Positions 26,057 through 46,823 of a stretch of 46,823 nucleotides of DNA are shown piece by piece. Every line of letters begins with the position of its first letter. Positions within the stretch are counted from its first letter, which is position 1. The notes under the pieces are model-generated. The model ran no database searches. It worked only from the letters and a program-made list of their open reading frames with translations, and was not told the origin of the DNA. The DNA is from Comamonadaceae bacterium (lineage in GTDB: Bacteria > Pseudomonadota > Gammaproteobacteria > Burkholderiales > Burkholderiaceae_C). Both the position numbers and the translations under genes were made by a program. The stretch lies in assembly GCA_947452785.1 (NCBI GenBank), contig CANGDZ010000022.1:1-46823 (forward strand), written 5' to 3'.

Positions 26057-26073
26057 TTGTTGACCCCAAAGAC

Positions 26074-26098
26074 CCCCAGGCCTGCGCCTGGGGTTTTT
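26074..26098 (+). terminator. Intra-operon terminator between pstS and pstC
   Basis: CCCCAGGC (26074-26081), loop CTGC, GCCTGGGG (26086-26093), then five T. A textbook rho-independent terminator 17 bases past pstS; with no separate promoter seen before pstC, partial read-through is expected. Confidence 0.9.
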
Positions 26099-26115
26099 GA
26101 CACTTCAGGATGACC

Positions 26116-27965: not shown

Positions 27966-27967
27966 AT

Positions 27968-28750: not shown

Positions 28751-28764
28751 TCAGAAAGAGACTC

Positions 28765-30176: not shown

Positions 30177-30205
30177 TTTGAACTGAGTTTTTCCGGTTCT
30201 TAGGG

Positions 30206-30211
30206 TATCCT
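30206..30211 (+). promoter_or_regulatory. Possible internal -10 before phoR
   Basis: TATCCT lies six bases before the phoR ATG, and no ribosome site is visible. This resembles the ykgJ-like and marR starts (possible leaderless start), but there is no good -35, so the evidence is weak. Confidence 0.2.
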
Positions 30212-30217
30212 GCCTCG

Positions 30218-31574: not shown

Positions 31575-32144
31575 TTATTCGTGTGTGGGCCAATCTTGCA
31601 GCGCTCGCAGCGCCTTGAGAAGTTGCTGGCCAGAGGACGCCAGGCTGTCGTGGTTTTGAATTTCGATGAGTTGGCATCCTGGCGGCACGCGCAATGCCAG
31701 GGTTCGGTTGAGCCGATTTTCAATCGCCTGATGCGACTCACGGCCTCGCCCCAGTAGGCGCTGGCGCAAAACCTCGATGTCCGCCGTGATGTGCAGCACG
31801 GTCAACTCGGGGTAGAGTTGGGCGGCCTGTGGCAGGTGTGCCCGAGAGCCATTCACAAAGACCCATTGTTGCTGTGTCAATGGCCGCAGCTCCGCGTGGC
31901 GAATACCATACAGGTGCTCATTGGCGGCCCAATGCATTGCAAACGCTTGGGCGTCTAACAGCTGTTTGAATTGCGATGTTGACACGCTGTCATGCATTTC
32001 GCCATCGGCTGCGCAGGCTCGGTTGATGGTGCGGCGAGCCCAGGCGACGGGCCACTGGCTAGGTAATTGCGATCGCAGCCAGTTCAGTAAACTGTCTTTG
32101 CCTGCACCGGATGGGCCGACCACATAAATGAGTTGCGCGTTCAT
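31575..32144 (-). CDS. phnN: Ribose 1,5-bisphosphate phosphokinase PhnN
   Basis: 189 residues, guanylate-kinase-like fold. The Walker A loop is VVGPSGAGKDSLL near residues 8-20, followed by ARRTINRACAADGEMHD (the R-R-T and acidic binding region) and WAANEHLYGI. PhnN phosphorylates ribose 1,5-bisphosphate to PRPP, the salvage step after C-P lyase. The start chosen is MNAQLIYVV, whose ATG overlaps the stop of the DUF1045 gene by four bases; a longer frame would only extend into that gene. Last of three genes in the phnF-DUF1045-phnN operon. Confidence 0.92.
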   Translation of the reverse strand: MNAQLIYVVGPSGAGKDSLLNWLRSQLPSQWPVAWARRTINRACAADGEMHDSVSTSQFKQLLDAQAFAMHWAANEHLYGIRHAELRPLTQQQWVFVNGSRAHLPQAAQLYPELTVLHITADIEVLRQRLLGRGRESHQAIENRLNRTLALRVPPGCQLIEIQNHDSLASSGQQLLKALRALQDWPTHE

Positions 32145-32848
32145 CCGCGCAACTCCAAACTTTGCAGCCACTGAAAGTCAGCCCCTTTAACGGGCTCGGC
32201 AAACAAAGCGATGTGCGTGAATCGGCAGATCGGTAAAGTTTCAAATTGCATCTGGGCGGCTTGCACCAGGGCCTGGCGTTCAAGGTCTGAAATGGAGTGC
32301 AGGGGGCCGGTGAGCGACAGGTGAAATTGGTATTCATCCAACACCCAGGGGTAGCCCCATTGCACCAGCAACTGGTCTTGTGCCGGGGTCAATGGCGTTT
32401 GCCGACGCCGAGCCCAATCGGCTGGGCTCAATGGCTTGGCAAAGCCGTGCAAGCGGGTGACACACGCCGCGGCAGTGGACGCGATGGCGTTGGTGTGGCC
32501 TGCCGGTCGCAGAGACATAAAGCCCCCCGCGGTACTGACTTGAAGCGGCGGCAGATCGAAGGCGGGCAACTCTTGGGCCAAGTCCTGCATGGCGAGCAAC
32601 AGGGAGGCCACGCTGGCGTCAGGGCTCAGTTCAAATGGTGCTTTGAGCGTGGCATGCCAACCGTAGCGTCGCGGCTCTTGGGTGACAAGTCGAAATTGAT
32701 GTGCGTCCATGCCTGCGATCAGCGGTTGTTTCAGCGTCTGCCCCGTGGCTGCGCAGCGACCCAGCCAGTGACAGCCGGCAGCCCACCATTCGCTGTGCAG
32801 CGCGGGGATGAAGTAAACCGCATAGCGGTAAGCAAATTCAGTTTTCAT
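32141..32848 (-). CDS. DUF1045 phosphonate-operon protein with a 2H-phosphoesterase signature
   Basis: 235 residues. It matches the DUF1045 family found in phosphonate operons (start MKTEFAYRYAVYFIPALHSEWW). Two H-x-[TS] motifs are present: His65-Ala-Thr67 in YGWHATLKAPFEL and His176-Leu-Ser178 in YQFHLSLTGPL. Paired motifs about 110 residues apart are the active-site mark of the 2H phosphoesterase superfamily, which opens cyclic phosphodiesters. No function is proven for the family. It lies between phnF and phnN, overlapping both by a few bases, and no phnP gene is in the window, so a role in opening phosphoribosyl cyclic phosphate is plausible (inference). Confidence 0.88.
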   Translation of the reverse strand: MKTEFAYRYAVYFIPALHSEWWAAGCHWLGRCAATGQTLKQPLIAGMDAHQFRLVTQEPRRYGWHATLKAPFELSPDASVASLLLAMQDLAQELPAFDLPPLQVSTAGGFMSLRPAGHTNAIASTAAACVTRLHGFAKPLSPADWARRRQTPLTPAQDQLLVQWGYPWVLDEYQFHLSLTGPLHSISDLERQALVQAAQMQFETLPICRFTHIALFAEPVKGADFQWLQSLELRG

Positions 32849-33599
32849 GGTGATTGACGGTGAGGCTGACGCGATCGCCTGCAAACCAGGCGTAGGCAAA
32901 TTCAATGGGTGTGTGGTCGGTATCGATGTTCACGCTTTTCACCAACAACACGGGGCGCGTGGCAGATTGACCCAGCAGCAACGCGACCTCTTTGCTGGGC
33001 AGGCGCGCTGAGACGCGGCTTTCTTGTCGCATGTAGTCGATCACGCCATGCTGCGCAAAGCCTTCGGTGATGGAGCCCGTGCTGGTGACGATATCGGCAA
33101 GTTGTGCAAAGCGCGGCAAAGGAAAGTAACGTTCACTCACATGCAGTGGTTGGCCTGCGCCTTCACCCACCACTTGCAAAAAAAGCAGCGCACTCTCGGC
33201 GGCGACTTGCAGTGCCTGTGCCTGTTCCACTGTGGCGCAGACCGTCTGGCTGCGCATCACGCGCAGCTCGCCGCGCAAGCCTGCTTGCAACAGATTGTGT
33301 CGGTGACGCGTGCGTTTGCCCAGCGCAAGATCCACTGCCAAATTCTCCACATAGGTGCCGCTGCCTTGCGTTGATCGGACCAAGCCATTTTGCCCCAGAT
33401 GCGCCAAGGCGCGCCGAATGGTGTGCCGGTTGGCACCGAACTGCGCAGCCAGTTGATGCTCTGAAGGCAGCTTGATGCCGGGCGCATAAAAACCCTGACC
33501 AATGGCATAAGCCAAGTCCTGTGCAATGCGTGACCAGAAGCTTTCGCGCTCAGTGCCGACTTGTGGCTGTGGATTCAAAAAAGTCACTCCAGTTGTCAT
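32838..33599 (-). CDS. phnF: GntR-family (PhnF-type) transcriptional regulator
   Basis: 253 residues from MTTGVTF; a longer frame to 33671 would cover the promoter region. The N-terminal GntR winged helix is seen in YAPGIKLPSEHQLAAQFGAN and RHTIRRALAHLGQNGLVRS-type residues with GSGTYV as the wing. The C-terminal UTRA effector domain follows, with LHVSERYFPLPRF and the ending TPIEFAYAWFAGDRVSL. PhnF represses phosphonate genes and is released by a ligand. No ribosome site is obvious before the ATG. It is divergent from phnG; a PhnF-type operator lies between them and a second one precedes phnC. Confidence 0.93.
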   Translation of the reverse strand: MTTGVTFLNPQPQVGTERESFWSRIAQDLAYAIGQGFYAPGIKLPSEHQLAAQFGANRHTIRRALAHLGQNGLVRSTQGSGTYVENLAVDLALGKRTRHRHNLLQAGLRGELRVMRSQTVCATVEQAQALQVAAESALLFLQVVGEGAGQPLHVSERYFPLPRFAQLADIVTSTGSITEGFAQHGVIDYMRQESRVSARLPSKEVALLLGQSATRPVLLVKSVNIDTDHTPIEFAYAWFAGDRVSLTVNHHEN

Positions 33600-33642
33600 G
33601 AAAGATACACACCGATTGCCTAAGCTCAAGAGTATGTTCAAG

Positions 33643-33654
33643 TTGTATAGACAA
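33643..33654. promoter_or_regulatory. Putative PhnF operator at phnF/phnG
   Basis: TTGTATAGACAA is an imperfect palindrome (TTGT/ACAA arms) ending 19 bases before the phnG ATG and 44 bases from the phnF start. Its core GTATAGAC is the same as in the published Mycobacterium smegmatis PhnF operator TGGTATAGACCA. It recurs, with one change, before phnC. Confidence 0.78.
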
Positions 33655-33673
33655 GTAAGAGGGTGCCACAACG

Positions 33674-34180
33674 ATGTTTCAACCGTATGACCATGCCGAG
33701 TCTTCTACAAAGACAGAGCGACAAAAGTGGATGGCCTTGTTGGCCCGGGCGCCCCAGCCTCTGCTGGACGATGCTTTGACAGCCCATGATGCCGCGCAGC
33801 CTCAGTGGTTGCGCCGTCCGGAGACCGGTCTGATGATGGTGCAGGGCAGGGCGGGGGGAACGGGCGAGCGCTTCAATCTGGGGGAGGTCACGGTCACGCG
33901 CTGCGCATTGCGCTTGGCGCAGGCCGCTGACGATGCACCGGTTGGCGTCGCCTATGTCCTGGGGCGCAACCATCGCCAAGCGCACATGGCCGCAGTGGCC
34001 GATGCCTTGTTGCAAGACCCCGCGCAGCGTGCAGATCTGGAAGTAACTTTGTTGGCGCCGGTGCGTCGGCATTTGTTGCACCAACAGGCTCAGCGTCATG
34101 CACGAGCACAAACCACCAAAGTGGATTTTTTAACCGTGGCGCGCGAAGCAGGCGATGGCGAGGAAGGTGAGACCTCATGA
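33674..34180 (+). CDS. phnG: C-P lyase core subunit PhnG
   Basis: 168 residues. PhnG is a small subunit of the PhnGHIJ core complex, which with PhnI carries out attachment of the phosphonate to the ribose of ATP. Typical sequence marks are RQKWMALLARAPQP at the N-terminus, LRRPETGLMMVQGRAGGTGERFNLGE and VGVAYVLGRNHRQA. A GAGGG ribosome site lies 12 bases before the ATG, just after the PhnF operator. The stop overlaps phnH by four bases, first gene of a tight eight-gene operon to phnM. Confidence 0.94.
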   Translation: MFQPYDHAESSTKTERQKWMALLARAPQPLLDDALTAHDAAQPQWLRRPETGLMMVQGRAGGTGERFNLGEVTVTRCALRLAQAADDAPVGVAYVLGRNHRQAHMAAVADALLQDPAQRADLEVTLLAPVRRHLLHQQAQRHARAQTTKVDFLTVAREAGDGEEGETS

Positions 34181-34803
34181 ACACAGAAGTTTTGCAAAAC
34201 CTGGTGGCTGGTTTTGACCACGAGGCCTATGGCAGTCAAGCGGTGTTTCGCACGGCGCTGAATGCGCTGTCTCACCCCGGTCGCCCCTTGGACATGCCCT
34301 TGAGCACGGCATTGCCGCGACAGGGTCATGCCGCCGCCGCTGCCTTGCTGCTGGGCTTGGTAGATGCCGATACCGCGCTGTGGTTGTCGCCCGGCTTGGC
34401 AGGCAGTGATGCGGCCACTTGGCTGCGTTTTCATACCGGTTGCGCGTGGGTGTCTGACCCGGGAGTAGCACACTTTATTTGGGTGGCGCAAGGCGATGCC
34501 ATGCCTGAGCTGCAGAGCTTGCGCCAAGGCACCGATGCCTATCCTGATCAATCCGCCACTTGCGTGATCGAGGTGCAAAGTCTGCACAGCGATGAGGGTG
34601 AAAAAGGCGGCTGGATTCTGCAAGGCCCCGGTATCTTGGGGCAGCGCAGATTGCACGTGCAAGGCCTGCCGGCCGATTTTGAAACGCAATGGGCAAGCAA
34701 CCACGCCAGCTTTCCTTGCGGAGTCGACGTATTTTTGGCCACTGCTGCGCACATCGTGGGCTTGCCACGCACCACGCGTTTATTCACCTCAGAGGAAGCT
34801 TGA
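34177..34803 (+). CDS. phnH: C-P lyase core subunit PhnH
   Basis: 208 residues. Family marks: an N-terminal GFDHEAYGSQAVFRTALNA, LSHPGRPLDMP, and the C-terminal CGVDVFLATAAHIVGLPRTT. PhnH is structurally related to PLP-dependent enzymes but binds no cofactor, and is an essential part of the PhnGHIJ complex. Four-base overlap with phnG; phnI begins just after its stop. Confidence 0.94.
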   Translation: MNTEVLQNLVAGFDHEAYGSQAVFRTALNALSHPGRPLDMPLSTALPRQGHAAAAALLLGLVDADTALWLSPGLAGSDAATWLRFHTGCAWVSDPGVAHFIWVAQGDAMPELQSLRQGTDAYPDQSATCVIEVQSLHSDEGEKGGWILQGPGILGQRRLHVQGLPADFETQWASNHASFPCGVDVFLATAAHIVGLPRTTRLFTSEEA

Positions 34804-34804
34804 T

Positions 34805-35938
34805 ATGTACGTGGCCGTCAAAGGCGGGGAAACCGCCATCCTCAACAGCTACAAGTTGCTCGCCGAGCAGCGACGCGGCGACACCGCGCAAGCCGAACTG
34901 AGCGTCGATCAAATTCGCCAGCAGCTCAAGCTGGCGGTGGACCGTGTCATGACCGAAGGCTCGGTGTACGACCCCGAGCTGGCGGCGCTCGCCATCAAAC
35001 AGGCCAGTGGTGATTTGGTTGAAGCCATTTTTTTGCTGCGCGCTTACCGCGCCACCTTGCCACGCTTGGGCAATACCTGTGCGCTGGACACCGCCCGCAT
35101 GCAGCTGGACCGGCGTATCTCGGCGACTTTCAAAGATTTGCCGGGCGGTCAGGTTTTAGGCCCGACCTACGACTACACCCAGCGTTTGCTGGACTTCACT
35201 TTGATGGCCAACGCACAAGCGGATGACGCGGCGCCGGACCTTGCCTTGCCTGCTGCCACCGCGCTGCCTGACAAAGTGCCCCGCGTGGTTGATCTGCTGA
35301 ACCAAGAGGGTTTGATTGAAACCTTTGAGCGACCCGAACATGACCCCGCGCCCCGTGACTTGACGCGGGAGCCGCTGCGCTTTCCCGCCGACCGTGCCAC
35401 GCGTTTGCAAAACATCGCCCGTGGCGACGAGGGTTTTTTACTGGCCATGGCCTATTCCACGCAACGTGGTTACTCGCACACCCACCCCTTTGTGGGTGAA
35501 GTGCGCTTAGGCCAAGTGGCCGTGGAGATCGAGCCTGAAGAACTCGGCTTTGCGATCTCCATTGGCGAGATGGAAATCACCGAATGTGAAATGGTGAATC
35601 AGTTCGCAGGCAGTAAAACCGAGCCGCCCAAGTTCACCCGCGGCTATGGTCTGGCCTTTGGCCACAGCGAGCGCAAAGCCATGGCCATGAGTTTGGTCGA
35701 CCGCGCCCTGCGCGCTGAAGAATTGGGTGAAGCCATCGAGTCGCCCGCGCAAATGCAGGAGTTTGTGCTTTCGCACAGTGACAGCCTGGAGGCCTCGGGC
35801 TTTGTGCAGCATTTGAAGTTGCCGCATTACGTGGACTTTCAGTCTGAGCTGGAGCTGGTGCGCAAGATGCGCGCGAAGTTGAGCAGCCCCGCAGACCCTG
35901 CTAGCGCCATCGCCTCGACCCGCCAGGAGAACGCATGA
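34805..35938 (+). CDS. phnI: C-P lyase core subunit PhnI
   Basis: 377 residues from MYVAVKGGETAILNSYKLLA; an upstream start in the same frame lies within phnH and is rejected. PhnI, with PhnG, H and L, catalyses displacement of adenine from ATP by methylphosphonate to form alpha-D-ribose-1-methylphosphonate 5'-triphosphate. Conserved blocks include the early KGGE, the central GNTCALDTARMQLDRRI, RGYSHTHPFVGEVR and FAISIGEMEITECEMVNQF. An AGAGGAAG ribosome site is nearby. Four-base overlap with phnJ. Confidence 0.96.
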   Translation: MYVAVKGGETAILNSYKLLAEQRRGDTAQAELSVDQIRQQLKLAVDRVMTEGSVYDPELAALAIKQASGDLVEAIFLLRAYRATLPRLGNTCALDTARMQLDRRISATFKDLPGGQVLGPTYDYTQRLLDFTLMANAQADDAAPDLALPAATALPDKVPRVVDLLNQEGLIETFERPEHDPAPRDLTREPLRFPADRATRLQNIARGDEGFLLAMAYSTQRGYSHTHPFVGEVRLGQVAVEIEPEELGFAISIGEMEITECEMVNQFAGSKTEPPKFTRGYGLAFGHSERKAMAMSLVDRALRAEELGEAIESPAQMQEFVLSHSDSLEASGFVQHLKLPHYVDFQSELELVRKMRAKLSSPADPASAIASTRQENA

Positions 35939-36786
35939 CCACGCCTGAAGTTAACTTTGCGTATCTTGACGAGCGCACCAAGCGCATGATCCGCCGCGCC
36001 ATTTTGAAAGCGGTGGCCATTCCTGGTTACCAAGTGCCGTTTGGCTCCAGAGAAATGCCACTGCCGTATGGCTGGGGTACTGGAGGCATCCAGGTCACTG
36101 CATCGGTCATTGGGCCCGACGACACGCTCAAAGTGATCGACCAAGGCTCCGATGACACGGTCAACGCCGTCAATATTCGGCGCTTTTTTGAACGCACGGC
36201 GGGCGTCAATACCACCACGCGCACCCATGAGGCCACGCTGATTCAGACGCGTCACCGCATTCCTGAAATGCCCTTGTCCGAGGGGCAAATTCTGGTCTAC
36301 CAAGTGCCTGTGCCTGAACCCATGCAACGCCTGGAGCCGCGTGAAACCGAGACCCGCACACTGCATGGCTTGGCCGAGTACGGCCTGATGCATGTGAAGC
36401 TGTATGAGGACATTGCGCGCTACGGCCACATTGCCACCACCTATGACTACCCGGTGATCGTGAACCACCGCTACATCATGTCGCCATCGCCGATCCCCAA
36501 GTTTGACAACCCCAAGATGCACATGAACCCGGCGTTGCAATTGTTTGGCGCGGGCCGCGAGAAACGCATTTATGCCGTGCCGCCCTACACCGCGGTCGAG
36601 AGTCTGGCGTTTGAGGATCATCCTTTTGAAATTCAAAAATGGAATGCTGTCTGCGCCCACTGTGGTGCCACCGATTCGTTTCTGGACGAAGTCATCACCG
36701 ACGACGCTGGGGGTCGACTGCATATTTGTTCGGATTCGGACTTTTGCCAAACACGGCAAGACGAACAGAGCACGGAGGCGGCATGA
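35935..36786 (+). CDS. phnJ: C-P lyase catalytic subunit PhnJ
   Basis: 283 residues. This radical-SAM subunit cleaves the carbon-phosphorus bond of ribose-1-phosphonate 5-phosphate to a cyclic phosphate. The Cys pattern CX2CX21CX5C is exact (Cys240, Cys243, Cys265, Cys271), giving the iron-sulfur cluster ligands and the catalytic Cys. Other marks: NFAYLDERTKRMIRRAILKA at the start, YGWGTGGIQ, IRRFFERTAGV and RHRIPEMPLSEGQILVYQ-like residues. All key residues are present, so the enzyme should be functional. Four-base overlap with the GNAT gene that follows. Confidence 0.97.
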   Translation: MTTPEVNFAYLDERTKRMIRRAILKAVAIPGYQVPFGSREMPLPYGWGTGGIQVTASVIGPDDTLKVIDQGSDDTVNAVNIRRFFERTAGVNTTTRTHEATLIQTRHRIPEMPLSEGQILVYQVPVPEPMQRLEPRETETRTLHGLAEYGLMHVKLYEDIARYGHIATTYDYPVIVNHRYIMSPSPIPKFDNPKMHMNPALQLFGAGREKRIYAVPPYTAVESLAFEDHPFEIQKWNAVCAHCGATDSFLDEVITDDAGGRLHICSDSDFCQTRQDEQSTEAA

Positions 36787-37250
36787 GTGTGCTCATTCGC
36801 CAAGCCACGGTCCAAGACTTGGCTGATGTGCTGCAGCTCTATGCCCAGCCAGCCATGGACAACGGCCAGGTGCTGTCGCTGCCAGAGGCTGAGCAGCAAT
36901 TTGCCCAGTTCAGCCTGTATCCCAACTACCGTTTGTTTGTCGCTTGCGAAGCGCAGAGCGATGCCCCTGCATCGGCAGGCCGAGTGGTCGGCACCTACGC
37001 TTTGTTGGTGATGCACAACTTGGCTCACCAGGGCACGCCATCTGCCATTGTGGAAGACGTGGTGGTCAGCGCTGAGCGCCAATCACAAGGCATAGGCCGC
37101 GCCATGATGGCGTCCGCCATGGACTTGGCGCGTGAAGCCGGTTGCTACAAGCTGGTGCTGTCGTCTAACCAAAAGCGCGAACGCGCACACGCCTTTTACG
37201 AGTCGCTGGGCTTTCAGCGCCATGGTTTCAGTTTTCAGATCGAGATTTGA
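36783..37250 (+). CDS. GNAT-family N-acetyltransferase inside the phn operon (PhnO-like position)
   Basis: 155 residues from MSVLIRQATVQDL; the longer upstream frame lies inside phnJ. The GNAT fold shows the acetyl-CoA loop ERQSQGIGRAMMASAM, the preceding strand IVEDVVVS, and the last helix KRERAHAFYESLGFQRHGFSF. In enteric bacteria PhnO acetylates aminoalkylphosphonates to detoxify or prepare them; this protein is in the operon but its similarity to PhnO itself cannot be judged by eye. Start overlaps phnJ by four bases; phnK follows after one base. Confidence 0.82.
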   Translation: MSVLIRQATVQDLADVLQLYAQPAMDNGQVLSLPEAEQQFAQFSLYPNYRLFVACEAQSDAPASAGRVVGTYALLVMHNLAHQGTPSAIVEDVVVSAERQSQGIGRAMMASAMDLAREAGCYKLVLSSNQKRERAHAFYESLGFQRHGFSFQIEI

Positions 37251-37251
37251 C

Positions 37252-38040
37252 ATGCCGACCTTAGACAACTCTCCGCCCTTGCTGCGCGTGCGCGGCGTGG
37301 GCAAAAATTATGGTGACCGCGTCGCCCTGCAAGACGCCAGCTTTGACTTGTGGCCCGGTGAGGTGATGGCCGTGGTTGGCGAATCAGGCTCGGGCAAAAC
37401 CACCTTGCTCAACGCCATTGCCGCCCGCAGTCGCCCGGATGTGGGACAGGTTGAGTTTCTCAGCCGCGAGGGTCAGCTGCAAGATGTGTATGCCATGAGC
37501 CAAGCGCAACAGCGCCTGCTGGCACGCACCGACTGGGGCTTTGTGCATCAAAACGCGGCCGATGGTTTGCGCATGGACGTGTCGGCCGGGGCCAATGTGG
37601 GTGAGCGCCTGATGGGCTTGGGCGAAAGGCATTACGGGCGCTTGCGCAGCACCGCCGAAGACTGGTTACAGCGCGTGGAAATTGACGCCTCACGCATCGA
37701 CGACACGCCGCGCACTTTTTCGGGCGGCATGCGCCAGCGCTTGCAAATTGCGCGCAACTTGGTCACCCGCCCGCGCCTGGTGTTCATGGACGAGCCTACC
37801 TCCGGGCTGGATGTGTCAGTGCAAGCGCGCTTGCTCGACTTGCTTCGCCAACTCTCACGGCAAATGCAATTGGCCGTGGTCATCGTCACGCACGACTTGG
37901 CCGTTGCCCGTTTGCTGGCGCACCGCATGATGGTCATGCAGCAAGGCTGTGTGGTGGAGTCGGGCCTGACGGATCAAGTGCTTGACGACCCGCAGCACCC
38001 CTACACCCAGTTGCTGGTGTCTTCTGTTTTACAACCTTGA
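37252..38040 (+). CDS. phnK: C-P lyase ABC-type ATPase subunit PhnK
   Basis: 262 residues. ABC-type ATPase that binds the C-P lyase core rather than a membrane permease. Walker A is GESGSGKTT, the signature is FSGGMRQRLQ, Walker B is LVFMDEPTSGLD and the switch His is in VVIVTHDLAVARLLA. An oligopeptide-transporter-like fold (GxxxDP-QHPYT ending) is typical for PhnK. The ATG at 37252 follows the GNAT stop by one base; a longer in-frame start at 37132 lies within the GNAT gene. Confidence 0.94.
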   Translation: MPTLDNSPPLLRVRGVGKNYGDRVALQDASFDLWPGEVMAVVGESGSGKTTLLNAIAARSRPDVGQVEFLSREGQLQDVYAMSQAQQRLLARTDWGFVHQNAADGLRMDVSAGANVGERLMGLGERHYGRLRSTAEDWLQRVEIDASRIDDTPRTFSGGMRQRLQIARNLVTRPRLVFMDEPTSGLDVSVQARLLDLLRQLSRQMQLAVVIVTHDLAVARLLAHRMMVMQQGCVVESGLTDQVLDDPQHPYTQLLVSSVLQP

Positions 38041-38059
38041 ACTGCTTGAGAGAACCACG

Positions 38060-38764
38060 ATGCTGCATATGAAACAGGTGTCCAAGCGCTTCACGCTGCA
38101 CCACCAACACGGGGCCCAGTTGCAGGTACTGCACCAGGTTGATTTGAACGTCGGCCCCGGCGAATGCGTGGTGCTCGATGGCCCATCGGGCATGGGCAAG
38201 AGTACGTTGCTGAAACTCATTTACGCGAACTACCGCGCCACCAGTGGCCAGATTGAGGTGCACCAAGCCGATGGCAAGGTGCTGGAGTTGACCCAGGCCT
38301 CACCACGTGAACTGGTGCGCATGCGCCGGGACACGGTCGGCTATGTGAGCCAATTTTTGCGCGTGATCCCACGCGTGTCGGCGCTGGATGTGGTGGCTGA
38401 ATCGCTGATCGACGATGCCGCAGACCAAGTGGACGCCATTGAAGCCGCACGTGAACAAGCGCGGGTCTGGTTGACGCGTTTGAGCATCCCCGAGCGACTG
38501 TGGCCCTTGCCGCCAGCCACTTTCTCCGGCGGTGAGCAGCAGCGCGTGAACATCGCGCGCAACATGATCAAGCCCCGACCCATTCTGTTGCTCGACGAGC
38601 CCACCGCGTCTTTAGACGCCGCCAACACCCATACCGTCATCACACTGATTCAAGAGGCCGTTGCGCGCGGCACTGCCTTGGTGGGTATTTTTCATGATGC
38701 GAGCGTGGGGCAGGCTGTGGCCACCCGACGCATCGATGTCGCTCAATTCAGGACCCCCGCATGA
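38060..38764 (+). CDS. phnL: C-P lyase ABC-type ATPase subunit PhnL
   Basis: 234 residues from MLHMKQVSKRFTLHHQ. ABC ATPase with Walker A GPSGMGKST, the signature FSGGEQQRVNIARNM, Walker B ILLLDEPTASLD and the switch His in GIFHDASVG. The segment SQFLRVIPRVSALDVVAE is typical of PhnL. It supports the PhnGHI reaction; the PhnL ABC half is needed in vivo for C-P lyase. The Walker A has Met instead of the usual Ser, a minor change. It overlaps phnM by four bases. A start at 37982 would lie in phnK and is rejected. Confidence 0.94.
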   Translation: MLHMKQVSKRFTLHHQHGAQLQVLHQVDLNVGPGECVVLDGPSGMGKSTLLKLIYANYRATSGQIEVHQADGKVLELTQASPRELVRMRRDTVGYVSQFLRVIPRVSALDVVAESLIDDAADQVDAIEAAREQARVWLTRLSIPERLWPLPPATFSGGEQQRVNIARNMIKPRPILLLDEPTASLDAANTHTVITLIQEAVARGTALVGIFHDASVGQAVATRRIDVAQFRTPA

Positions 38765-39915
38765 ACTCCCTTGTTTTTAAAAATGCCCAAATGGTTTTGC
38801 CCCACGAGGTCGTGTCGGGCAGCGTCTCTGTTGTTGAGGGGTTGATTGCTGCGGTGGACCAAGGCCCCGCCATGCATGCCGAAGGCTGGGATCTTGAGGG
38901 CGACTACCTGATGCCCGGCTTTGTCGAGATGCACACCGACAATTTTGAGCGCCACCTGATGCCACGCCCCAAAGTGCAATGGGCCGAAATGCCCGCCTTG
39001 CTGGCGCACGACGCCGAGGTGGCGGCCTCAGGCATCACCACGGTGTTCGATGCACTGGGTGTGGGCGATGCCGACTCAGACAGTTTGCGTGGCAGCACCT
39101 GGGATGCGGTGCTGAACGTGCTGGAGGTCTGCAGTGCAGAAAACTTATTGCGTGCTGATCACCATCTGCACGTGCGCTGTGAGTTGCCTGCCCCCAATAC
39201 CATCGATTTGTTTGCGCCCTTTCATGATCACCCGCGCTTGTCGTTAATCTCGCTGATGGACCACACCCCCGGTCAGCGCCAGTGGGAAAACATCGACGTG
39301 GCCCGGGTTTACTACACCGGCAAAAAAGGCTGGTCGAATGAAAAGTTCGAACGCCAGGTGCTGCACGCGGCTGAATTGCAAGCGCGTTACGCAGCGCCGC
39401 ACCGCGCCTACTTTGTGAACTATTGCCATACACATCACATTGCGCTGGCCAGCCACGACGACACCACGCCCGACCATGTGCAGCAAGCCCACGCCGAGGG
39501 CGCCAGCATGTCGGAGTTCCCCACTACCTTGCTGGCCGCACAAACAGCGCATGCCCACGGTTTGCTCACGGTGATGGGTGGGCCCAATGTGGTGCGCGGG
39601 GGCTCGCATTCGGGCAATGTGTCGGCGGCCGAGTTGGCGCGCCATGGCTTGCTGGACATTTTGTCGTCTGACTATGTGCCCGGCAGTTTGCTCAGTGCGG
39701 TCGTGCGCTTGGTCGACGACGGTATTTACAGTTTGCCGCAAGCGGTGGCCACCGTCACGCACAACCCAGCGCAAGCCACCGGTCTCAAAGACCGGGGGCA
39801 GATCGCCGTGGGGCAGCGCGCTGATTTGATTCAAGTGCGCTTTGTGGCCTTGCCCCAAGGCGGGCGCCATGCCGTGGTGCGGGCGGTGTGGCGCGAAGGG
39901 CAGCGTGTGTTGTGA
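38761..39915 (+). CDS. phnM: Alpha-D-ribose 1-methylphosphonate 5-triphosphate diphosphatase PhnM
   Basis: 384-residue amidohydrolase-superfamily enzyme that removes pyrophosphate to give ribose-1-methylphosphonate 5-phosphate, the PhnJ substrate. The first metal-binding motif is PGFVEMHTDNFERH (His-x-Asp, PhnM-type), followed by GVGDADSDSLR, the metal His pair in NYCHTHHIALASHDD, and the late Asp in ILSSDYVPGSLL. Length matches E. coli PhnM (378). Last gene of the phnG-M transcript, followed by a 104-base control region for phnC. Confidence 0.96.
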   Translation: MNSLVFKNAQMVLPHEVVSGSVSVVEGLIAAVDQGPAMHAEGWDLEGDYLMPGFVEMHTDNFERHLMPRPKVQWAEMPALLAHDAEVAASGITTVFDALGVGDADSDSLRGSTWDAVLNVLEVCSAENLLRADHHLHVRCELPAPNTIDLFAPFHDHPRLSLISLMDHTPGQRQWENIDVARVYYTGKKGWSNEKFERQVLHAAELQARYAAPHRAYFVNYCHTHHIALASHDDTTPDHVQQAHAEGASMSEFPTTLLAAQTAHAHGLLTVMGGPNVVRGGSHSGNVSAAELARHGLLDILSSDYVPGSLLSAVVRLVDDGIYSLPQAVATVTHNPAQATGLKDRGQIAVGQRADLIQVRFVALPQGGRHAVVRAVWREGQRVL

Positions 39916-40019: not shown

Positions 40020-40874
40020 ATGGCACTGAAGATTCAAAATTTAGACAAACATTTCCCCAACGGAAAACACGCCTTGCGCGACATCAATCTGAGTATTGGT
40101 GAGGGCGAAATGGTGGCCTTGATCGGCGCCTCGGGTTCCGGTAAGTCCACCTTGCTGCGTATGGTGGCCGGTTTGTTGCCGGCGGATGCAGGGCCAGGAT
40201 CTTTGATCGAAGTGAATGGACACTGCGTACAACGGGACGGACGCATTGCCAGCGACATTCGCACCATTCGCTCGCAAGTGGGCTTTGTTTTTCAGCAATT
40301 CAATTTGGTGGACCGTTTGCCCGTGCTGGTCAATGTGTTGGTGGGGCGTTTGCACTGCATGCCGCTATGGCGCGGCGTGATGCGTTGGTTCAATGCCCAT
40401 GAACGCACGTTGGGGCTGGAGGCTTTACAGCGTGTAGGCATTTTGGAATGCCACGGTCAACGTGCTTCGACCTTGTCTGGCGGGCAACAGCAACGCGCAG
40501 CGATTGCGCGCACCTTGGTGCAAGGCGCCAAGCTGGTGCTGGCCGATGAGCCGATTGCCTCGCTGGACCCCGAATCGTCCCGCAATGTGATGGAAATTTT
40601 GACCCGTATTCAGCGTGAAGATGGCCGCACCGTAGTGGTCTCTTTGCACCAGGTGGACATGGCCATTCGCTATTGCCCCCGCGTGATTGCGCTGAACCAA
40701 GGCCAGGTGGTCTATGACGGGCTGTCAGCCAACTTGACGCCTGCTTTGCTGCGCCAGTTGTACGGCATGCAAGCCGATGAATTTTTGAGTGGCAGCGAGT
40801 TGCTCACCAAAGTTCCTGCTCAAGACACTGTGCCAGTCTTGGCATGGGCTGCGCCCATCGCCCAGATGGCTTGA
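40020..40874 (+). CDS. phnC: Phosphonate ABC transporter ATPase PhnC
   Basis: 284-residue cytoplasmic ATPase of the PhnCDE importer. Walker A is [13 protein letters not shown], the Q-loop is in [17 protein letters not shown], the signature is [13 protein letters not shown], Walker B is [15 protein letters not shown] and the switch His is in [12 protein letters not shown]. The family mark [15 protein letters not shown] matches PhnC. The C-terminus is slightly longer than in E. coli PhnC. A GAGG ribosome site lies between the PhnF-type operator and the ATG. Confidence 0.95.
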
Positions 40875-40912
40875 ATCTCTCTTTTACTTTTAAACCTGCT
40901 GGAGATCCTACT

Positions 40913-41857
40913 ATGTTCAAAAAATCATTGACCGCACTGGCCTTGGGCCTGAGCTTGATGGGCGCCATGGCGCAAGATATCAGCTTTGGCTTTATTTCGA
41001 CCGAATCTAGTCAAAACATCAAGTCCGATTGGCAGCCGCTGATTGACGACATGGAAAAGCAGACCGGTTTGAAGGTCAAGGCTTTCTTTGCGACCGATTA
41101 CGCCGGCATTATCGAAGCCATGCGCTTTAACAAAGTGCAACTGGCCTGGATGGGCAACAAGTCGGCCATGGAGGCTGTGGACCGTTCTAACGGTGAAGTG
41201 TTTGCGCAAATGGTCAACGCCGATGGCACTCAAGGTTATTACTCGCACCTGATCGTGCACAAAGACAGCCCGATCAATAACCTGGACGACATGTTCAAAA
41301 ACGGCAAGAACTTGAGCTTTGGCAATGGCGACCCGAACTCCACATCGGGCTTTTTGGTGCCTAGTTTTTATGTGTTTGCACAAAACAAGCAAGACCCCAA
41401 AACACTGTTCAAAGTGATGCGCAGCGCTAACCACGAAACCAATGCCTTGGCTGTGGCCAACAAGCAAGTCGATGTGGCGACCAACAACAGCGAAAATTTG
41501 GAAAAGCTCCAAGGGCGTCAACCTGAAAAAGTCAAAGACATCAAAGTCATCTGGACCTCCCCACTGATCGCTTTGGATCCTTTGGTGATCAGCAAAGGCT
41601 TGCCTGAAGCGACCAAGACGAAGATCAAAAACTTCTTCTACAACTACGCCAAAACCGACGCGCGTGAAAAAGAAATTGTCATGAAGATTTCGAAGTTGTC
41701 GGGCTTTAAAGCGTCGACCAACGACCAACTCAAACCGATTCGCCAATTGGATTTGTTTGGCAAGCGCAACAAGATCGATGCTGACACCACCCTGTCTGAC
41801 GCTGACAAAAAGACCAAACTGATTGAAATCGATCAGCAATTGGCTGCCTTGAAATAA
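40913..41857 (+). CDS. phnD: Phosphonate ABC transporter periplasmic binding protein PhnD
   Basis: 314 residues from [18 protein letters not shown], with a GGAG ribosome site eight bases upstream (an in-frame start at 40844 lies in phnC). Sec signal peptide with cleavage after AMA. Family marks of the PhnD binding fold: [40 protein letters not shown] and [15 protein letters not shown], where Ser-Thr-Ser contacts the phosphonate. Expected ligands are alkyl or aminoalkyl phosphonates. Second gene of the phnCDE operon. Confidence 0.95.
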
Positions 41858-41877
41858 GTTCTGTGACGGTACTTCGC

Positions 41878-42684
41878 ATGTCTACCCCCGCCAATTTAAA
41901 AATGCAGGCCTTGGCCGAGTCGGCCGCTTCATCGCGCAGCCTGAGTTGGTATTTGTGCTGGGGCGCTTTGCTGGCTTTACTGGCCTGGTCTTGGCAAGGG
42001 GCAGACATGCGGCCTATGGAGTTGTGGCGCGACTCCGGCAATATGAAAACCTATGCGGCGGAATTTTTTCCGCCTAATTTTGGCCACTGGCGCATCTATC
42101 TGGACGAGATGCTGGTGACCTTACAGATCGCGTTGTGGGGCACGGCATTGGCCGTGGTCACGGCCATACCGATGGGCCTTTTGGCTTCGTCCAACATCGT
42201 GCCCTGGTGGGTCTACCAGCCGGTGCGTCGCGTGATGGACGCATGCCGCGCCATCAATGAGATGGTGTTCGCCATGCTGTTTGTCGTGGCCGTGGGCCTG
42301 GGGCCTTTTGCCGGGGTCTTGGCCTTGTGGATACATACCACCGGCATCTTGGCCAAGTTGTTTTCTGAAGCAGTCGAAGCCATCGACCCTCAGCCGGTCG
42401 AAGGCATCCGGTCTACCGGTGCCACGGCTTTGCATGAAATTGTGTACGGCGTGATTCCGCAGGTCATGCCCCTATGGATTTCATTTGCCTTGTACCGATT
42501 CGAGTCCAATGTGCGCTCTGCCACCGTGGTCGGCATGGTCGGGGCGGGCGGTATCGGTGTGGTGCTGTGGGAAATCATCCGCGGTTTTCAATACGCCGAG
42601 ACCGGCGCTGTGATGCTGATCATCATTGTCACGGTCAGTTTGATTGATTTGATTTCATCCCGTATTCGCCAATTTTTTGTCTGA
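41878..42684 (+). CDS. phnE: Phosphonate ABC transporter permease PhnE
   Basis: 268-residue inner-membrane permease with about six helices. The region [39 protein letters not shown] and the EAA loop [21 protein letters not shown] are typical of Phn[18 protein letters not shown] follows. It forms the channel with PhnC energising it. ATG at 41878 is preferred; a GTG at 41863 would add five residues. The HD-domain gene begins nine bases after its stop, so all four genes form one unit. Confidence 0.94.
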
Positions 42685-42692
42685 GGTGCCTC

Positions 42693-43244
42693 ATGTCCCT
42701 GACCCTGTCGCAAGTCACTGATCTTTTACAAAACCACGGTCAAAACCAATACGGCATGGAGGCGGTCAGTCAGTTGGAACATGCTTTGCAGTGCGCGGAC
42801 CTGGCAGAGAAAGCAGGGGAAACTGCCGAGACTATTGCCGCGTCATTGCTTCACGATCTCGGCCATATGCTGGTGGCTCAAGGTCTAGGGCAGCAAGAAA
42901 TCGACACCCGCAAGGACGACCTGCATCAGTTCATGGCCTTGCCGTTTTTACGGGGCTTGTTCACCGACGCCGTGCTGGAGCCGATTCGCATGCATGTGGA
43001 TGCCAAGCGCTATTTGTGCCTGATCGATCCAGGCTATTGGGCCGAGTTATCGCCCGCTTCCAAACACAGCTTGGAGCAGCAAGGCGGCATCTTCAGCGAG
43101 TCACAAGCGGATAGCTTCATGCAGCAACCCTATGCCGCTGAGGCGGTTCGTTTGCGTCGCTATGACGATTTGGCCAAAACACCGCTGAAGGTTGTGCCTT
43201 CTCTTGTGCACTTTGAATACTATTTAAATCAGGCTTGCATCTGA
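42693..43244 (+). CDS. PhnZ-like HD-domain oxygenase (phosphonate-operon HDIG protein)
   Basis: 183 residues. HD-domain protein of the kind linked with phosphonate operons. Its residues line up with the di-iron oxygenase PhnZ: Tyr20, Glu23 and His30 are spaced exactly as PhnZ Tyr24, Glu27, His34; the HD pair is His54-Asp55 (PhnZ 58-59); His78 and His101 match the next ligands, and Lys105 follows His101 by four as in PhnZ. A C-terminal Asp (159/160) completes the site. PhnZ cleaves 2-amino-1-hydroxyethylphosphonate and relatives cleave hydroxymethylphosphonate. The partner hydroxylase PhnY is not in the window. Its substrate is unknown. Confidence 0.88.
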   Translation: MSLTLSQVTDLLQNHGQNQYGMEAVSQLEHALQCADLAEKAGETAETIAASLLHDLGHMLVAQGLGQQEIDTRKDDLHQFMALPFLRGLFTDAVLEPIRMHVDAKRYLCLIDPGYWAELSPASKHSLEQQGGIFSESQADSFMQQPYAAEAVRLRRYDDLAKTPLKVVPSLVHFEYYLNQACI

Positions 43245-43261: not shown

Positions 43262-43289
43262 TGTCATAAAAATTTCATAAAAATGCCGC
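43262..43289 (+). promoter_or_regulatory. Pho box upstream of the TonB-dependent receptor
   Basis: TGTCAT (43262), TTTCAT (43273) and TGCCGC (43284) follow each other every 11 bases, with AAAAA as both spacers. A TATTGT -10 candidate lies 11 bases beyond, at 43301. It is preceded only by the stop of the HD gene. Confidence 0.8.
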
Positions 43290-43379
43290 AGTAGTGACTT
43301 TATTGTTTTTTACAGTTCTCCCAGTTGAGAAAAGTTATTTTCACTTTTCTTATCTGTTCAACCTCAGCTGTAAAAATTC

Positions 43380-45626
43380 ATGCTCAAAACTTCTGCCCCT
43401 AAGCCACAACGCCTGGCCCAATTGGTCTCTTTGGCCTTCATCACCTCGGTGGGTGGTGCGGCATTCGCCGACACCGTAGACCTTGGTACTGTGGGTGCCA
43501 GTGGCGCTGCAGGTTCGACGGTTTCGGTCAAGGCAGAGCGCGGCACGGCCGCCTCTGTGGCACCAACGCAAGCCAGCCTGAGTGCAACGCAGCCTCAGTC
43601 GATCGTTTCACGCGCTTTCATTGAAGACTCCACACCGCCTACAGGTAACTTCAACACGATCTTGGCCATTGCACCCAGCGTCGCCTCTATGCCCTCCACC
43701 AACGGGCCTGGCATGGCGGACCAAAAAATGTCGCTGCGCGGCTTTCAAGACGGCGAATACAACGTCACCTTTGACGGCATTCCCTTTGGCGACAGCAACG
43801 GCCCCACGCACCACTCCACTTCCTATTTCCCAGCTTCTGTGATCGGCGGCATGGTGATTGACCGCGGTCCAGGTAACGCCAGCAACGTGGGTTACTCGAC
43901 CTATGGCGGTAGTGTCAACTTGTTCTCTAAGGCGCCTTCGCAAACCAAGCAAACCAGCGTGTATGGCTCGCTGGGGAACTGGGGTACTCGCTTGGAAGGT
44001 ATTTCTTATGAAAGCGGCCGCATGGAGGGCAGTGACGCCACCTTGCAAGTGAACGCCCAGAATATGGCCGCCACCGGGTATCTGTCGAATTCACCGATGG
44101 ACAACAACAACCTGACGGTGAAGTACCAACGCCCATTGGGTGATTCGACCTTGATGACGATCTTTGGTAGTGCCAACAAGGTCAAGTCCAACGTCACCGA
44201 CAACGCATCAGGCCCCACCATGGCGCAAGTGGCTGTACTGGGTAAAAACTATGTGATGAACAGCAACCCAGCCAGCCAAGGTTTTTACGGCTACAACACA
44301 GCCACCAAGACCACGGACATGGATTACGTTCGTTTGCAGACCACCTGGGCCAATGGCTGGCAAACCGACAACCAAACCTACACCTACGCCTACGCCAACT
44401 TTACCGAGGCAGGCCAAGATCCTTCGAAATTCAACGGCACGGCCGATTCGTCGATGTCTGTGAAGAATCTGTTGGGTACTTCTGTGACGTTGCCTAACGG
44501 CGGCGTGCCTGGCTATCACAAGCTGAACTCCTACCGCGTTTGGGGTGACATTCTCAAGGCCACCAAAAATCTTGACAATGGCTTGCTGCGCGTAGGTGCT
44601 TGGTATGAAGGCTCCAAAACTGATCGTCACAACATGGAAGCCAACATGGTCACCGGCAATGTGCTGGCCGGTGCATCATCCGCCTACCCAGCAGGCATTG
44701 TGACCACCGGCAACTTTACTCAACAAAATTCCAGCTGGAGCCAAATCCAGCCCTTCGTTGAGTTTGAGTGGGCTGCTGCACCTGGTTTGACGATCACACC
44801 GGGCTACAAGGCGATGAATTACAACTTCCACCTGGACTCGGCGTTTAACCAGAAGGCTTTGACAGCCCAGTCTTACAACAACAACTACAAAGCATCTTTG
44901 CCATTCCTGACGGTCAACAAAAGGTTGGACGAACAGAATTCGCTCTACGCTCAATATGCCAAGGGCATGCAAGTTCCGTTCATTGGTGTCGGCACAGCCA
45001 CTGGAACGCGTCCTGACCCACAGACCACCACCAACTACCAAGTCGGTGCGGTGCACAAGTCGGATCGCTTGACGATTGATGGTGATTTGTACTACATCAC
45101 CATGAACAATATGCAGCTGAACACCGGTACCAATGCGAACCCACAGTTCACCAACGTCGGTGGCGCGCTGTACAAAGGCGTTGAAGGTCAAGCCGCCTAT
45201 ATGTTGGGTGATGGTTGGTCTGCATTTGCCAACTTTGGTTACAACTTGGCCGACTACAGCGCCTCCAATGCGGCAGCAGGTCAACCGACGGGCCAAGTGC
45301 CTAACGCACCCAAGGTCACCACGGCCTATGGCGCGATTTACAACCAAGGTGATTGGACCGCCTCTTTGCTGTACAAACACATTGGCGAGCAGTACAACGC
45401 CAAGTTGCTGGGTCAGTTGAATGCCATCAACAACGCCGACTTGAACGTGGGTTATACCTTCCGTAACATGGACAACGTCAAGGCTCTGAAGATTCAGCTC
45501 AGCGTTTTCAACGTGACCAATTCGCAGCAAATCGTGGGTGTGACTGGGCCGCTGACTTCGGCTACGACACAGTACCAGTGGCAAGCGCCGCGCAGCATGA
45601 TGATTTCAGCCAAAGCTGACTTCTGA
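43380..45626 (+). CDS. TonB-dependent outer-membrane receptor
   Basis: 748 residues. A signal peptide (MLKTSAPKPQRLAQLVSLAF, cleavage after AFA) leads to a plug domain with FNTILAIAPSVAS, MSLRGFQDGEYNVTFDGIPFGD and the conserved GPGNASNVGYSTYGGSVNLF, then a 22-strand-type barrel ending in the outer-membrane signature Phe (ISAKADF). No ligand family is recognisable: plug details resemble siderophore and citrate receptors, but a phosphonate or phosphate-ester ligand is equally possible given the Pho box. No ribosome site is visible. The gene is followed after two bases by exbB, so the whole uptake system is one unit. Confidence 0.9.
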   Translation: MLKTSAPKPQRLAQLVSLAFITSVGGAAFADTVDLGTVGASGAAGSTVSVKAERGTAASVAPTQASLSATQPQSIVSRAFIEDSTPPTGNFNTILAIAPSVASMPSTNGPGMADQKMSLRGFQDGEYNVTFDGIPFGDSNGPTHHSTSYFPASVIGGMVIDRGPGNASNVGYSTYGGSVNLFSKAPSQTKQTSVYGSLGNWGTRLEGISYESGRMEGSDATLQVNAQNMAATGYLSNSPMDNNNLTVKYQRPLGDSTLMTIFGSANKVKSNVTDNASGPTMAQVAVLGKNYVMNSNPASQGFYGYNTATKTTDMDYVRLQTTWANGWQTDNQTYTYAYANFTEAGQDPSKFNGTADSSMSVKNLLGTSVTLPNGGVPGYHKLNSYRVWGDILKATKNLDNGLLRVGAWYEGSKTDRHNMEANMVTGNVLAGASSAYPAGIVTTGNFTQQNSSWSQIQPFVEFEWAAAPGLTITPGYKAMNYNFHLDSAFNQKALTAQSYNNNYKASLPFLTVNKRLDEQNSLYAQYAKGMQVPFIGVGTATGTRPDPQTTTNYQVGAVHKSDRLTIDGDLYYITMNNMQLNTGTNANPQFTNVGGALYKGVEGQAAYMLGDGWSAFANFGYNLADYSASNAAAGQPTGQVPNAPKVTTAYGAIYNQGDWTASLLYKHIGEQYNAKLLGQLNAINNADLNVGYTFRNMDNVKALKIQLSVFNVTNSQQIVGVTGPLTSATTQYQWQAPRSMMISAKADF

Positions 45627-45628
45627 AC

Positions 45629-46285
45629 ATGACACTCAGCAAGCTGTTTGATCTGGCGAACGCCTCTGGCGGAACGCTGTATCTGATGGCTTTGCTCATG
45701 TTGGTGGCCTTGACGGTCATCATCGAGCGAAGCCGCTATTTGTCCAAAATGCAACAAGACGGTGACAGCCTCATCGACTTGTTGCACGACGGCTCGGCCA
45801 TGGACCATGAGGTCTTGCTTAAGGCCTTGCAGCAATATGAAAACTTGCCCCACGCCAGCGTGGTGCATGCTTCGCTGATCGAGCCTGACACCTCCGAGCG
45901 TGATGTGTGTGCGGGTCACTTGGAAGAAGCCATCATGCGCGAAGTGCCCACCTTGGATCGCTCCTTGTGGGTGCTGGACACGGTGATCACCTTGGCGCCT
46001 TTGTTGGGGTTATTTGGCACCATCATTGGCATGTTCGGTGCTTTCTCTGTGCTGGGCGATGTGCAAAATGGTGCGAGCCAAGTCACGGGTGGCATTGCCG
46101 AGGCTTTGATTGCCACGGCTTCTGGTTTGATGATTGCCATGATCGGTTTGGTCTTCTTCAACTGGCTCAACACCAAAGTGCGCATGATCGTGCATCAGAT
46201 GGAAATCATCAAGGTCATGATTTTGAATCGTCGCTTTGGTCGCCATCAGCCTGCAGGAAGCAGAGCCACTTTGAAGGCAGTTTGA
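45629..46285 (+). CDS. exbB: ExbB-type biopolymer transport protein (MotA/TolQ/ExbB proton channel)
   Basis: 218 residues with three membrane segments. The first is in the region GGTLYLMALLMLVALTVIIE; the other two flank LGLFGTIIGMFGAF and GGIAEALIATASGLMIAMIG, which are the most conserved blocks of the family. With ExbD it uses the proton gradient to energise TonB. No ribosome site is seen two bases after the receptor stop, so translation is probably coupled. TolQ is the alternative, but the neighbours argue for ExbB. Confidence 0.92.
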   Translation: MTLSKLFDLANASGGTLYLMALLMLVALTVIIERSRYLSKMQQDGDSLIDLLHDGSAMDHEVLLKALQQYENLPHASVVHASLIEPDTSERDVCAGHLEEAIMREVPTLDRSLWVLDTVITLAPLLGLFGTIIGMFGAFSVLGDVQNGASQVTGGIAEALIATASGLMIAMIGLVFFNWLNTKVRMIVHQMEIIKVMILNRRFGRHQPAGSRATLKAV

Positions 46286-46286
46286 G

Positions 46287-46682
46287 ATGCGGTATTTTGA
46301 AACGCGCAAGGCGCGGATCGAGATCATTCCGATGATCGACATCATGCTGTTCTTGCTGGTCTTTTTTGCAATGATGACGTTGCGCATGATTCCCACATCA
46401 GGCCAGATTAGCAAGTTGCCTACCAGCAGCACGGCCAGTGCGATTCCACCGCCTAAGTTGATGGTGGAAATTCGCTCCAACGGTCAGTTGTTGGTCGAAG
46501 GCCATGACGCAGAGCCTGCCGAAATTACCGCCTTGGTCAAAGCACGTGACCCTGCTAATTTGGCCGTGACCATTGCTGGCAGTGATGATGCGTCCATGCA
46601 GCACTTGATGAAAGCTGTTGACGCGGTTCGCTTGGGCGGCGCCACGCAAATTGGTTTGGCTGCCAAACAGGTGCCGCGTTGA
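46287..46682 (+). CDS. exbD: ExbD-type biopolymer transport protein
   Basis: 131 residues with one N-terminal membrane helix (DIMLFLLVFFAMMTLRM). The essential protonatable Asp is Asp18 in IIPMIDIMLF. The periplasmic domain has PKLMVEIRSNGQLLVEGHD and the late AVRLGGATQIGLAAKQ, typical of ExbD/TolR. It starts one base after exbB, which provides an AAGG site, and its stop overlaps the following frame. Confidence 0.92.
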   Translation: MRYFETRKARIEIIPMIDIMLFLLVFFAMMTLRMIPTSGQISKLPTSSTASAIPPPKLMVEIRSNGQLLVEGHDAEPAEITALVKARDPANLAVTIAGSDDASMQHLMKAVDAVRLGGATQIGLAAKQVPR

Positions 46683-46823
46683 GCGCCACCTTCAACAGCC
46701 TGCCGGTGTGGGCACCCACCTCGAAAAGCAAGCCACCCCAAGGCGTTTGGTCTTCGCTGGGCTCAGCGCTGTTGATTGAGTTGGGTGTGGTGGGGGCGGT
46801 GATGGTCTGGGTGCTCTTGCACC
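46679..46823 (+). CDS. tonB: TonB-like energy transducer, 5' part (cut by the window edge)
   Basis: An open frame begins with TTG at 46679, overlapping the exbD stop (TTGA), and is open to the edge (48 codons). It encodes a short basic cytoplasmic stretch (SATFNSLPVWAPTSKSKPPQ) and then a hydrophobic helix with LLIELGVVGAVMVWVLLH, the layout of a TonB N-terminus. The Pro-rich spacer and C-terminal domain are outside the window, so the name rests mostly on the ExbB-ExbD order. Confidence 0.6.
   Translation, partial: MSATFNSLPVWAPTSKSKPPQGVWSSLGSALLIELGVVGAVMVWVLLH

What the first reader, a model, noticed from the sequence alone, without database searches (positions are those of the whole stretch)
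43262..46823. A complete TonB uptake system under Pho control next to the phosphonate genes
A TonB-dependent receptor with its own ExbB, ExbD and a TonB start follows a three-repeat Pho box with AAAAA spacers, straight after phnCDE and the HD oxygenase. TonB systems are usually tied to iron or B12. A dedicated one induced by phosphate starvation would suggest active outer-membrane import of a phosphorus compound (phosphonate, phosphate ester or metal complex). I see no iron-type control signal in the 135-base upstream region.
Basis: partly seen in the sequence, partly recalled or inferred. Interest (0 to 1): 0.82.

Follow-up and report, generated by a model that had tools for sequence, protein, structure and literature searches.

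The report
Phosphate-starvation TonB uptake system with phosphatase
A freshwater bacterium carries a complete, self-powered outer-membrane import machine that appears to be switched on by phosphate starvation and paired with a phosphatase, probably for taking up organic phosphate rather than phosphonates or iron.

Summary
A TonB-dependent receptor, ExbB, ExbD and a TonB start follow a tandem 11-bp Pho box. The contig ends inside TonB; contig C52 of the same genome overlaps it by 149 identical bases, completes TonB and adds a metallophosphoesterase (MPE) and cytochrome b561. Upstream lie ppk, ppx, pstSCAB-phoUBR and phn: a phosphorus island.

A special tie to phosphonates is not supported. phn adjoins the receptor only in this genome and two close relatives; in two others of the genus the operon follows phoR. 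In the genus, MPE is in 8 of 8 receptor-bearing genomes and 1 of 82 others; PhnJ in 3 of 8 and 16 of 82. The Pho box recurs in relatives without phn and was not found before 9 other receptors of this genome.

Trees and breakpoints indicate that a foreign receptor replaced the native one in place, between native promoter and exbB.

Best reading: Pho-induced import of an organic phosphate, cleaved by MPE, Pi taken in by PstSCAB. A metal-chelate role is not excluded. New variant of a known kind.

The parts
43262..43305 (+). Pho box, four 11-bp repeats: two good (43262, 43273), two weak (43284, 43295)
   Evidence: conserved in L001, L002, L077, L078 (degenerate second repeat in L002)
43380..45626 (+). 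TonB-dependent receptor, 748 aa; coding part apparently exchanged in place
45629..46285 (+). ExbB-type proton channel subunit, 218 aa
46287..46682 (+). ExbD-type subunit, 131 aa
46679..46823 (+). TonB start (TTG inferred), cut by contig end; completed on contig C52 (bases 5-727), followed there by metallophosphoesterase 758-2143 and cytochrome b561 2121-2720
40020..43244 (+). phnC, phnD, phnE and Phn-HD genes upstream; in L078 this place is taken by phoR
33674..39915 (+). C-P lyase genes phnG to phnM (G, H, K, L, M by NCBIfam, J by PF06007; PhnI inferred by position and size, no family hit at 1e-20)
31575..33671 (-). phnN, phn-operon protein (just below its cut-off) and phnF; phn block begins right after phoR
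25019..31570 (+). pstS, pstC, pstA, pstB, phoU, phoB, phoR
23323..24819 (-). exopolyphosphatase (Ppx/GppA type)
20146..22245 (+). polyphosphate kinase, with Pho-box repeats at 20041-20079

Best explanation
This is a Pho-regulon operon for active outer-membrane import of an organic phosphate compound (phosphomono- or diester, possibly metal-chelated). Phosphate shortage activates PhoB, which binds the box at 43262. The receptor binds the compound outside, and its own ExbB-ExbD-TonB energises passage into the periplasm. The co-encoded metallophosphoesterase cleaves it, and PstSCAB takes up the phosphate. Shown by sequence: gene order, completeness, domain calls, the box and its recurrence, the link to MPE, tree conflict and breakpoints of the receptor. 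Inferred: PhoB binding, direction of transport, MPE location and activity, substrate class.
For: MPE occurs in 8 of 8 receptor-bearing genomes of the genus and 1 of 82 others (Fisher p 1e-10), and in the family sample in 11 of 20 against 20 of 379 (p 1e-8) (not corrected for shared descent). 21 of 22 near-clade loci have a phosphatase-type gene within 6.5 kb (the markers were partly picked from these same loci, so this count is not independent). Pho box at p<0.05 in 14 of 19 near relatives other than W, L001 and L002, against 0 of 9 other receptors of this genome. In L077 and L078 the operon lies downstream of pst-phoU-phoB-phoR. MPE keeps metallophosphoesterase residues (D129, GD171-172, GNH221-223, H319, GHxH364-367) invariant in the 44 sequences aligned out of 120 listed (motif meaning recalled). 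In 4 of 6 rows of a more distant receptor clade an ABC importer lies beside the receptor; its binding protein lacks the Tyr pair aligned in ferric-binding HitA and shares SG-TY and SSA stretches with a pyridoxal-phosphate-binding protein.
Against: No substrate or expression evidence. MPE has no close solved structure, so its substrate is unknown. 9 of 20 family-sample receptor genomes lack this MPE type (5 of the 9 have another phosphatase-type gene within 6.5 kb), and in 4 of the 11 that have it MPE is on another contig than the receptor (G019, G173, G194, G353). Two of 22 near-clade loci (L056, L058) show no ExbB or ExbD hit. The nearest folds include ferric-citrate FecA, and the distant clade's binding protein scores best to ferric-binding HitA. 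The Pho site of W alone is not significant against GC-matched windows.
Confidence: 0.55

Rival explanations
1. Metal supply: the receptor imports a metal chelate needed by Pho-regulon metalloenzymes or C-P lyase, so it is Pho-induced although its cargo is not phosphorus.
For: Nearest folds PqqU/YncD and FecA; a His-His pair in the plug in 32 of 32 counted receptor rows (partial L071, left out of the count, shows it too); a possibly redox-active membrane protein in several loci: b561 after MPE (own genome, L001, L002, L078, L079), PepSY_TM after TonB in L004, a DUF4405-like protein just below cut-off in L005; the distant clade's binding protein resembles HitA/FbpA; methylphosphonate induced an iron-starvation response with TonB receptors in Nodularia (PMC5955973, passages).
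Against: No Fur-like box (weak evidence); partners are phosphatases; the distant binding protein lacks the Tyr pair; siderophore-receptor family score far below cut-off (59.9 against 223.5 bits).
Confidence: 0.2
2. Phosphonate import: the receptor brings a phosphonate or phosphonate ester to PhnCDE and C-P lyase.
For: Adjacency in W, L001, L002; within the genus the three genomes with this receptor type are the only receptor-bearing ones with PhnJ; same contig within about 20 kb in G375 and G317, both of one other genus; weak PhnJ enrichment; in L066, the one distant locus tested, the binding protein and ATPase score best to 2-aminoethylphosphonate transporter models, below cut-off.
Against: 14 of 20 receptor-bearing genomes lack PhnJ; 16 of 19 genus genomes with PhnJ have no receptor hit; direct phn adjacency seen in one lineage only.
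Confidence: 0.13
3. Uptake of inorganic phosphate or polyphosphate itself.
For: Neighbours ppk, ppx, pst.
Against: The usual partner is a phosphoesterase; porins normally suffice for phosphate (recalled).
Confidence: 0.07
4. Cell-surface signalling receptor.
For: P. aeruginosa has a PhoB-controlled signalling locus with exbB2D2-tonB4 (PMC4971064, passages).
Against: Pfam scan shows plug and barrel only, no N-terminal signalling domain; no sigma or anti-sigma family among the neighbour proteins scanned.
Confidence: 0.03

Closest known systems
Low-phosphate-induced TonB transporters and PusCD systems of Flavobacterium (PMC8115612, passages seen)
   Same: TonB transporters induced by phosphate depletion, beside phosphomono- and diesterases; one (Fjoh_0545) is listed in the PhoBR operon
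   Different: Bacteroidetes; Pus systems have a SusD partner; ExbB and ExbD do not occur in that text. Here the operon carries its own ExbB, ExbD and TonB, with no SusD among the neighbours scanned
Caulobacter PhoB-regulated TonB receptors (PMC11208175, passages)
   Same: PhoB controls TonB receptors thought to import alternative phosphate donors
   Different: No dedicated energiser described in the passages seen
P. aeruginosa PUMA3 locus with exbB2D2-tonB4 (PMC4971064 and PMC2729926, passages)
   Same: Extra ExbB-ExbD-TonB set under phosphate-starvation control
   Different: Works through sigma VreI; neighbours are two-partner secretion genes; VreA lacks a barrel
TonB transporter beside phytase in Citromicrobium (PMC3400609, passages)
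   Same: Receptor-phosphatase gene pair read as organic phosphate uptake
   Different: No Pho box or own energiser described in the passages seen

Membership tests
TonB-dependent transporter system | Plug and beta-barrel receptor | tested here: met
   PF07715 and PF00593 over cut-off; model pLDDT 84.7 and the 50 Foldseek matches shown are TonB transporters, some with partners
TonB-dependent transporter system | ExbB, ExbD and TonB encoded with it | tested here: met
   TonB completed on overlapping contig C52
TonB-dependent transporter system | TonB box | tested here: inconclusive
   N-terminal DLGT(V/I)-like stretch in most rows; reading it as a TonB box is inference
Pho regulon | Tandem 11-bp Pho box upstream | tested here: met
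   not significant alone
Pho regulon | PhoB-dependent induction at low phosphate | not testable with these tools
   needs expression data
TonB-dependent siderophore receptor (TIGR01783) | Score over curated cut-off | tested here: not met
   59.9 against 223.5 bits
Fur-regulated iron uptake | Fur box | tested here: inconclusive
   none found, but none for 9 other receptors either
Pus (SusCD-like phosphate utilisation) | SusD-like partner | tested here: not met
   no SusD domain among the neighbour proteins scanned
PUMA3-type signalling | N-terminal signalling domain, sigma and anti-sigma genes | tested here: not met
   for the receptor; none among the neighbour proteins scanned

The most novel reading that the evidence does not exclude
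A Burkholderiales class of self-powered, Pho-induced organophosphorus import operons whose receptor is an exchangeable specificity module: the energiser, promoter and phosphoesterase stay while receptors are swapped by recombination near the signal peptide and stop codon, and a sister clade couples the same receptor type directly to an organophosphate-type ABC importer.
Probability: 0.35. Interest if true: 0.72.

Novelty: new variant of a known kind. Interest (0 to 1): 0.52.

Why it matters
Outer-membrane uptake of organic phosphorus is usually thought to be passive through porins (recalled). A dedicated energised system in a pst-pho island, paired with a phosphoesterase, would give proteobacteria an active route comparable to the one proposed for Bacteroidetes, and the two receptor types in otherwise matching operons give a natural experiment on what sets the specificity.

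Tried and rejected
Phosphonate as the defining partner: rejected on co-occurrence and gene order. A first mismatch scan for the Pho box with TGTCAT only was replaced by a weight matrix trained on 12 repeats from other promoters of the window; these were picked because they fit the pattern. A GC-matched background gave weaker results and is reported. Sequence search of solved structures found no relative of receptor or MPE. The MPE model matched only the general fold (Mre11, Vps29). A scan of viral contigs found no relative. L005 and L006 were left out of counts because they appear to be the same contigs as L054 and L055 (equal contig lengths). L079 has too little upstream sequence and was left out of Pho-box counts. 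L003 and L004 are nearly identical and both counted. Partial L071 was left out of the residue count. Paper searches for this system (open-licence PMC only) listed none that I recognised as describing it; only ten papers were opened, by passages found with search terms.
Full report
What is there. The window appears to be the whole contig C22 of a draft genome of 3.5 Mb (98% complete, 4% contamination). Close relatives are uncultured Burkholderiales or Comamonadaceae. Its last 3.6 kb hold a Pho box, a TonB-dependent receptor, ExbB, ExbD and the first codons of TonB. Contig C52 begins with 149 bases identical to the end of the window and continues: TonB, MPE (94% identical to that of L001), cytochrome b561, PhoD and a phytase-like protein (families by Pfam on L001 and L002). 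L001 and L002, records of other isolates, show the same order, so an assembly artefact is unlikely.

Setting. Upstream in the window lie polyphosphate kinase, exopolyphosphatase, pstSCAB, phoU, phoB and phoR, then phnN, phnF, phnG-M and phnCDE with Phn-HD. The stretch is a phosphorus island. In L078 pstC-pstA-pstB-phoU-phoB-phoR runs into the receptor operon with about 260 bases before the receptor start; in L077 one other gene, on the opposite strand, intervenes. Among the loci examined the phn block stands between phoR and this operon in W, and directly before the receptor in W, L001 and L002 only.

Regulation. The box TGTCATAAAAA-TTTCATAAAAA-TGCCGC-TGACTT is 118 bases upstream of the start codon. 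The aligned promoters of W, L001, L002, L077 and L078 keep it, with a degenerate second repeat in L002, although L077 and L078 have a receptor of only 45-48% identity and no phn. With a matrix from other promoters of the window, W has p 0.003; 14 of 19 near relatives other than W, L001 and L002 have p<0.05, against 4 of 10 distant ones and 0 of 9 other receptors of this genome. Against GC-matched real windows the result is weaker (5 of 22 near-clade sites, W included, below 0.05, combined p 2e-5; W alone 0.18). No Fur-like site was found, but the test also found none at the other nine receptors, so it cannot exclude iron control.

Partners. Receptor hits at E<=1e-60 occur in 20 of 399 family genomes, 5 of 369 class genomes and 8 of 90 genus genomes, the own genome included each time. 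MPE is found in 31 of 399 and 9 of 90. In the genus all 8 receptor genomes have MPE and 1 of 82 others does (p 1e-10); PhnJ is in 3 of 8 and 16 of 82 (p 0.36). In the family sample MPE is in 11 of 20 (odds ratio 22) and PhnJ in 6 of 20 (odds ratio 3.7). These p-values ignore shared descent. In 4 of the 11 MPE is on another contig than the receptor (G019, G173, G194, G353), so the pair is not always adjacent there. Of 22 near-clade loci, 21 have a phosphatase-type gene within 6.5 kb, the miss being L061 whose contig ends early; 2 have phn. The marker set was drawn partly from these loci. The distant loci have 2 of 10. The same queries around the nine other receptors of this genome hit no phosphatase marker except the continuation of this operon on C52, but one of the nine stands beside a 5'-nucleotidase that was not among the queries. 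ExbB and ExbD were found in 20 of the 22 near-clade loci, not in L056 and L058.

Receptor exchange. In the receptor tree W, L001 and L002 fall in a clade (100/100) with other genera, whereas same-genus L076-L079 fall in another clade (100/100). In the ExbB tree W, L001 and L002 group with L076-L079 (100/99). Along the DNA, W resembles L078 in the box region (78%), the first 60 bases of the receptor (73-83%) and from the receptor stop onward (88-93%), but only 42-66% per 200-base window through the receptor; with L004 it is the other way round (74-82% through the receptor, 45-83% after it). The simplest account is replacement of the receptor coding part in place; duplication and loss is not formally excluded.

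Structure. The receptor model (pLDDT 84.7) is nearest to PqqU/YncD and FecA, transporters of small polyanionic ligands (ligand nature recalled); fold similarity among TonB transporters is general, so this is only suggestive. A His-His pair in the plug is present in 32 of 32 counted rows, and many Arg and Lys positions are constant in the near clade.

Distant clade. In L066, L068, L073 and L075 (receptor 33-37% identical), 4 of 6 rows of their clade, an ABC importer lies next to the receptor; L067 ends after ExbD, and L074 has a phosphodiesterase-like gene (by eye) instead. The binding protein of L066 scores best to ferric-binding HitA, then to pyridoxal-phosphate-binding P5PA. The Tyr pair of HitA is replaced, and motifs shared with P5PA are kept in 4 of 4 with small changes. 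This hints at an organophosphate cargo, but at that distance it is no proof for the window.

Literature. Low-phosphate-induced TonB transporters are known in Flavobacterium, including one listed in the PhoBR operon and some near phosphonate-degrading enzymes (PMC8115612, passages), and in Caulobacter (PMC11208175, passages). P. aeruginosa has exbB2D2-tonB4 under phosphate-starvation control (PMC4971064, passages). The kind is known; the self-contained operon with MPE and the exchanged receptor is a new variant as far as the searches show.

Verdict. Observation confirmed; Pho control likely; phosphonate specificity unlikely; organic phosphate import most likely (0.55), metal chelate the main rival (0.2).

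Noticed in passing
L107 2430-9549 (contig C52 14429-21548, minus strand): A second complete TonB system (ExbB, an 825-aa receptor, TonB, ExbD) lies about 12 kb past the first, behind a 5'-nucleotidase and phosphatidylserine decarboxylase; no convincing Pho box. Possibly nucleotide-derived phosphorus uptake.
   Followed up: partly
L066, L068, L073, L075: Distant receptors sit beside an ABC importer whose binding protein lies between iron-binding and organophosphate-binding types.
   Followed up: partly
window 18169-18207 and 15988-16004: Further Pho-box-like repeats near the starts of ORFs at 18201 and 16072 that were not identified.
   Followed up: no
L099 (G375) and L100 (G317): phn clusters on the same contig as a receptor in two genomes of one other genus, in other gene orders.
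   Followed up: partly
G813 contig C103: Only genus genome with MPE but no receptor hit; the assembly is in about 590 contigs.
   Followed up: no
L056 and L058: Near-clade receptors followed by TonB without a detected ExbB or ExbD between.
   Followed up: no
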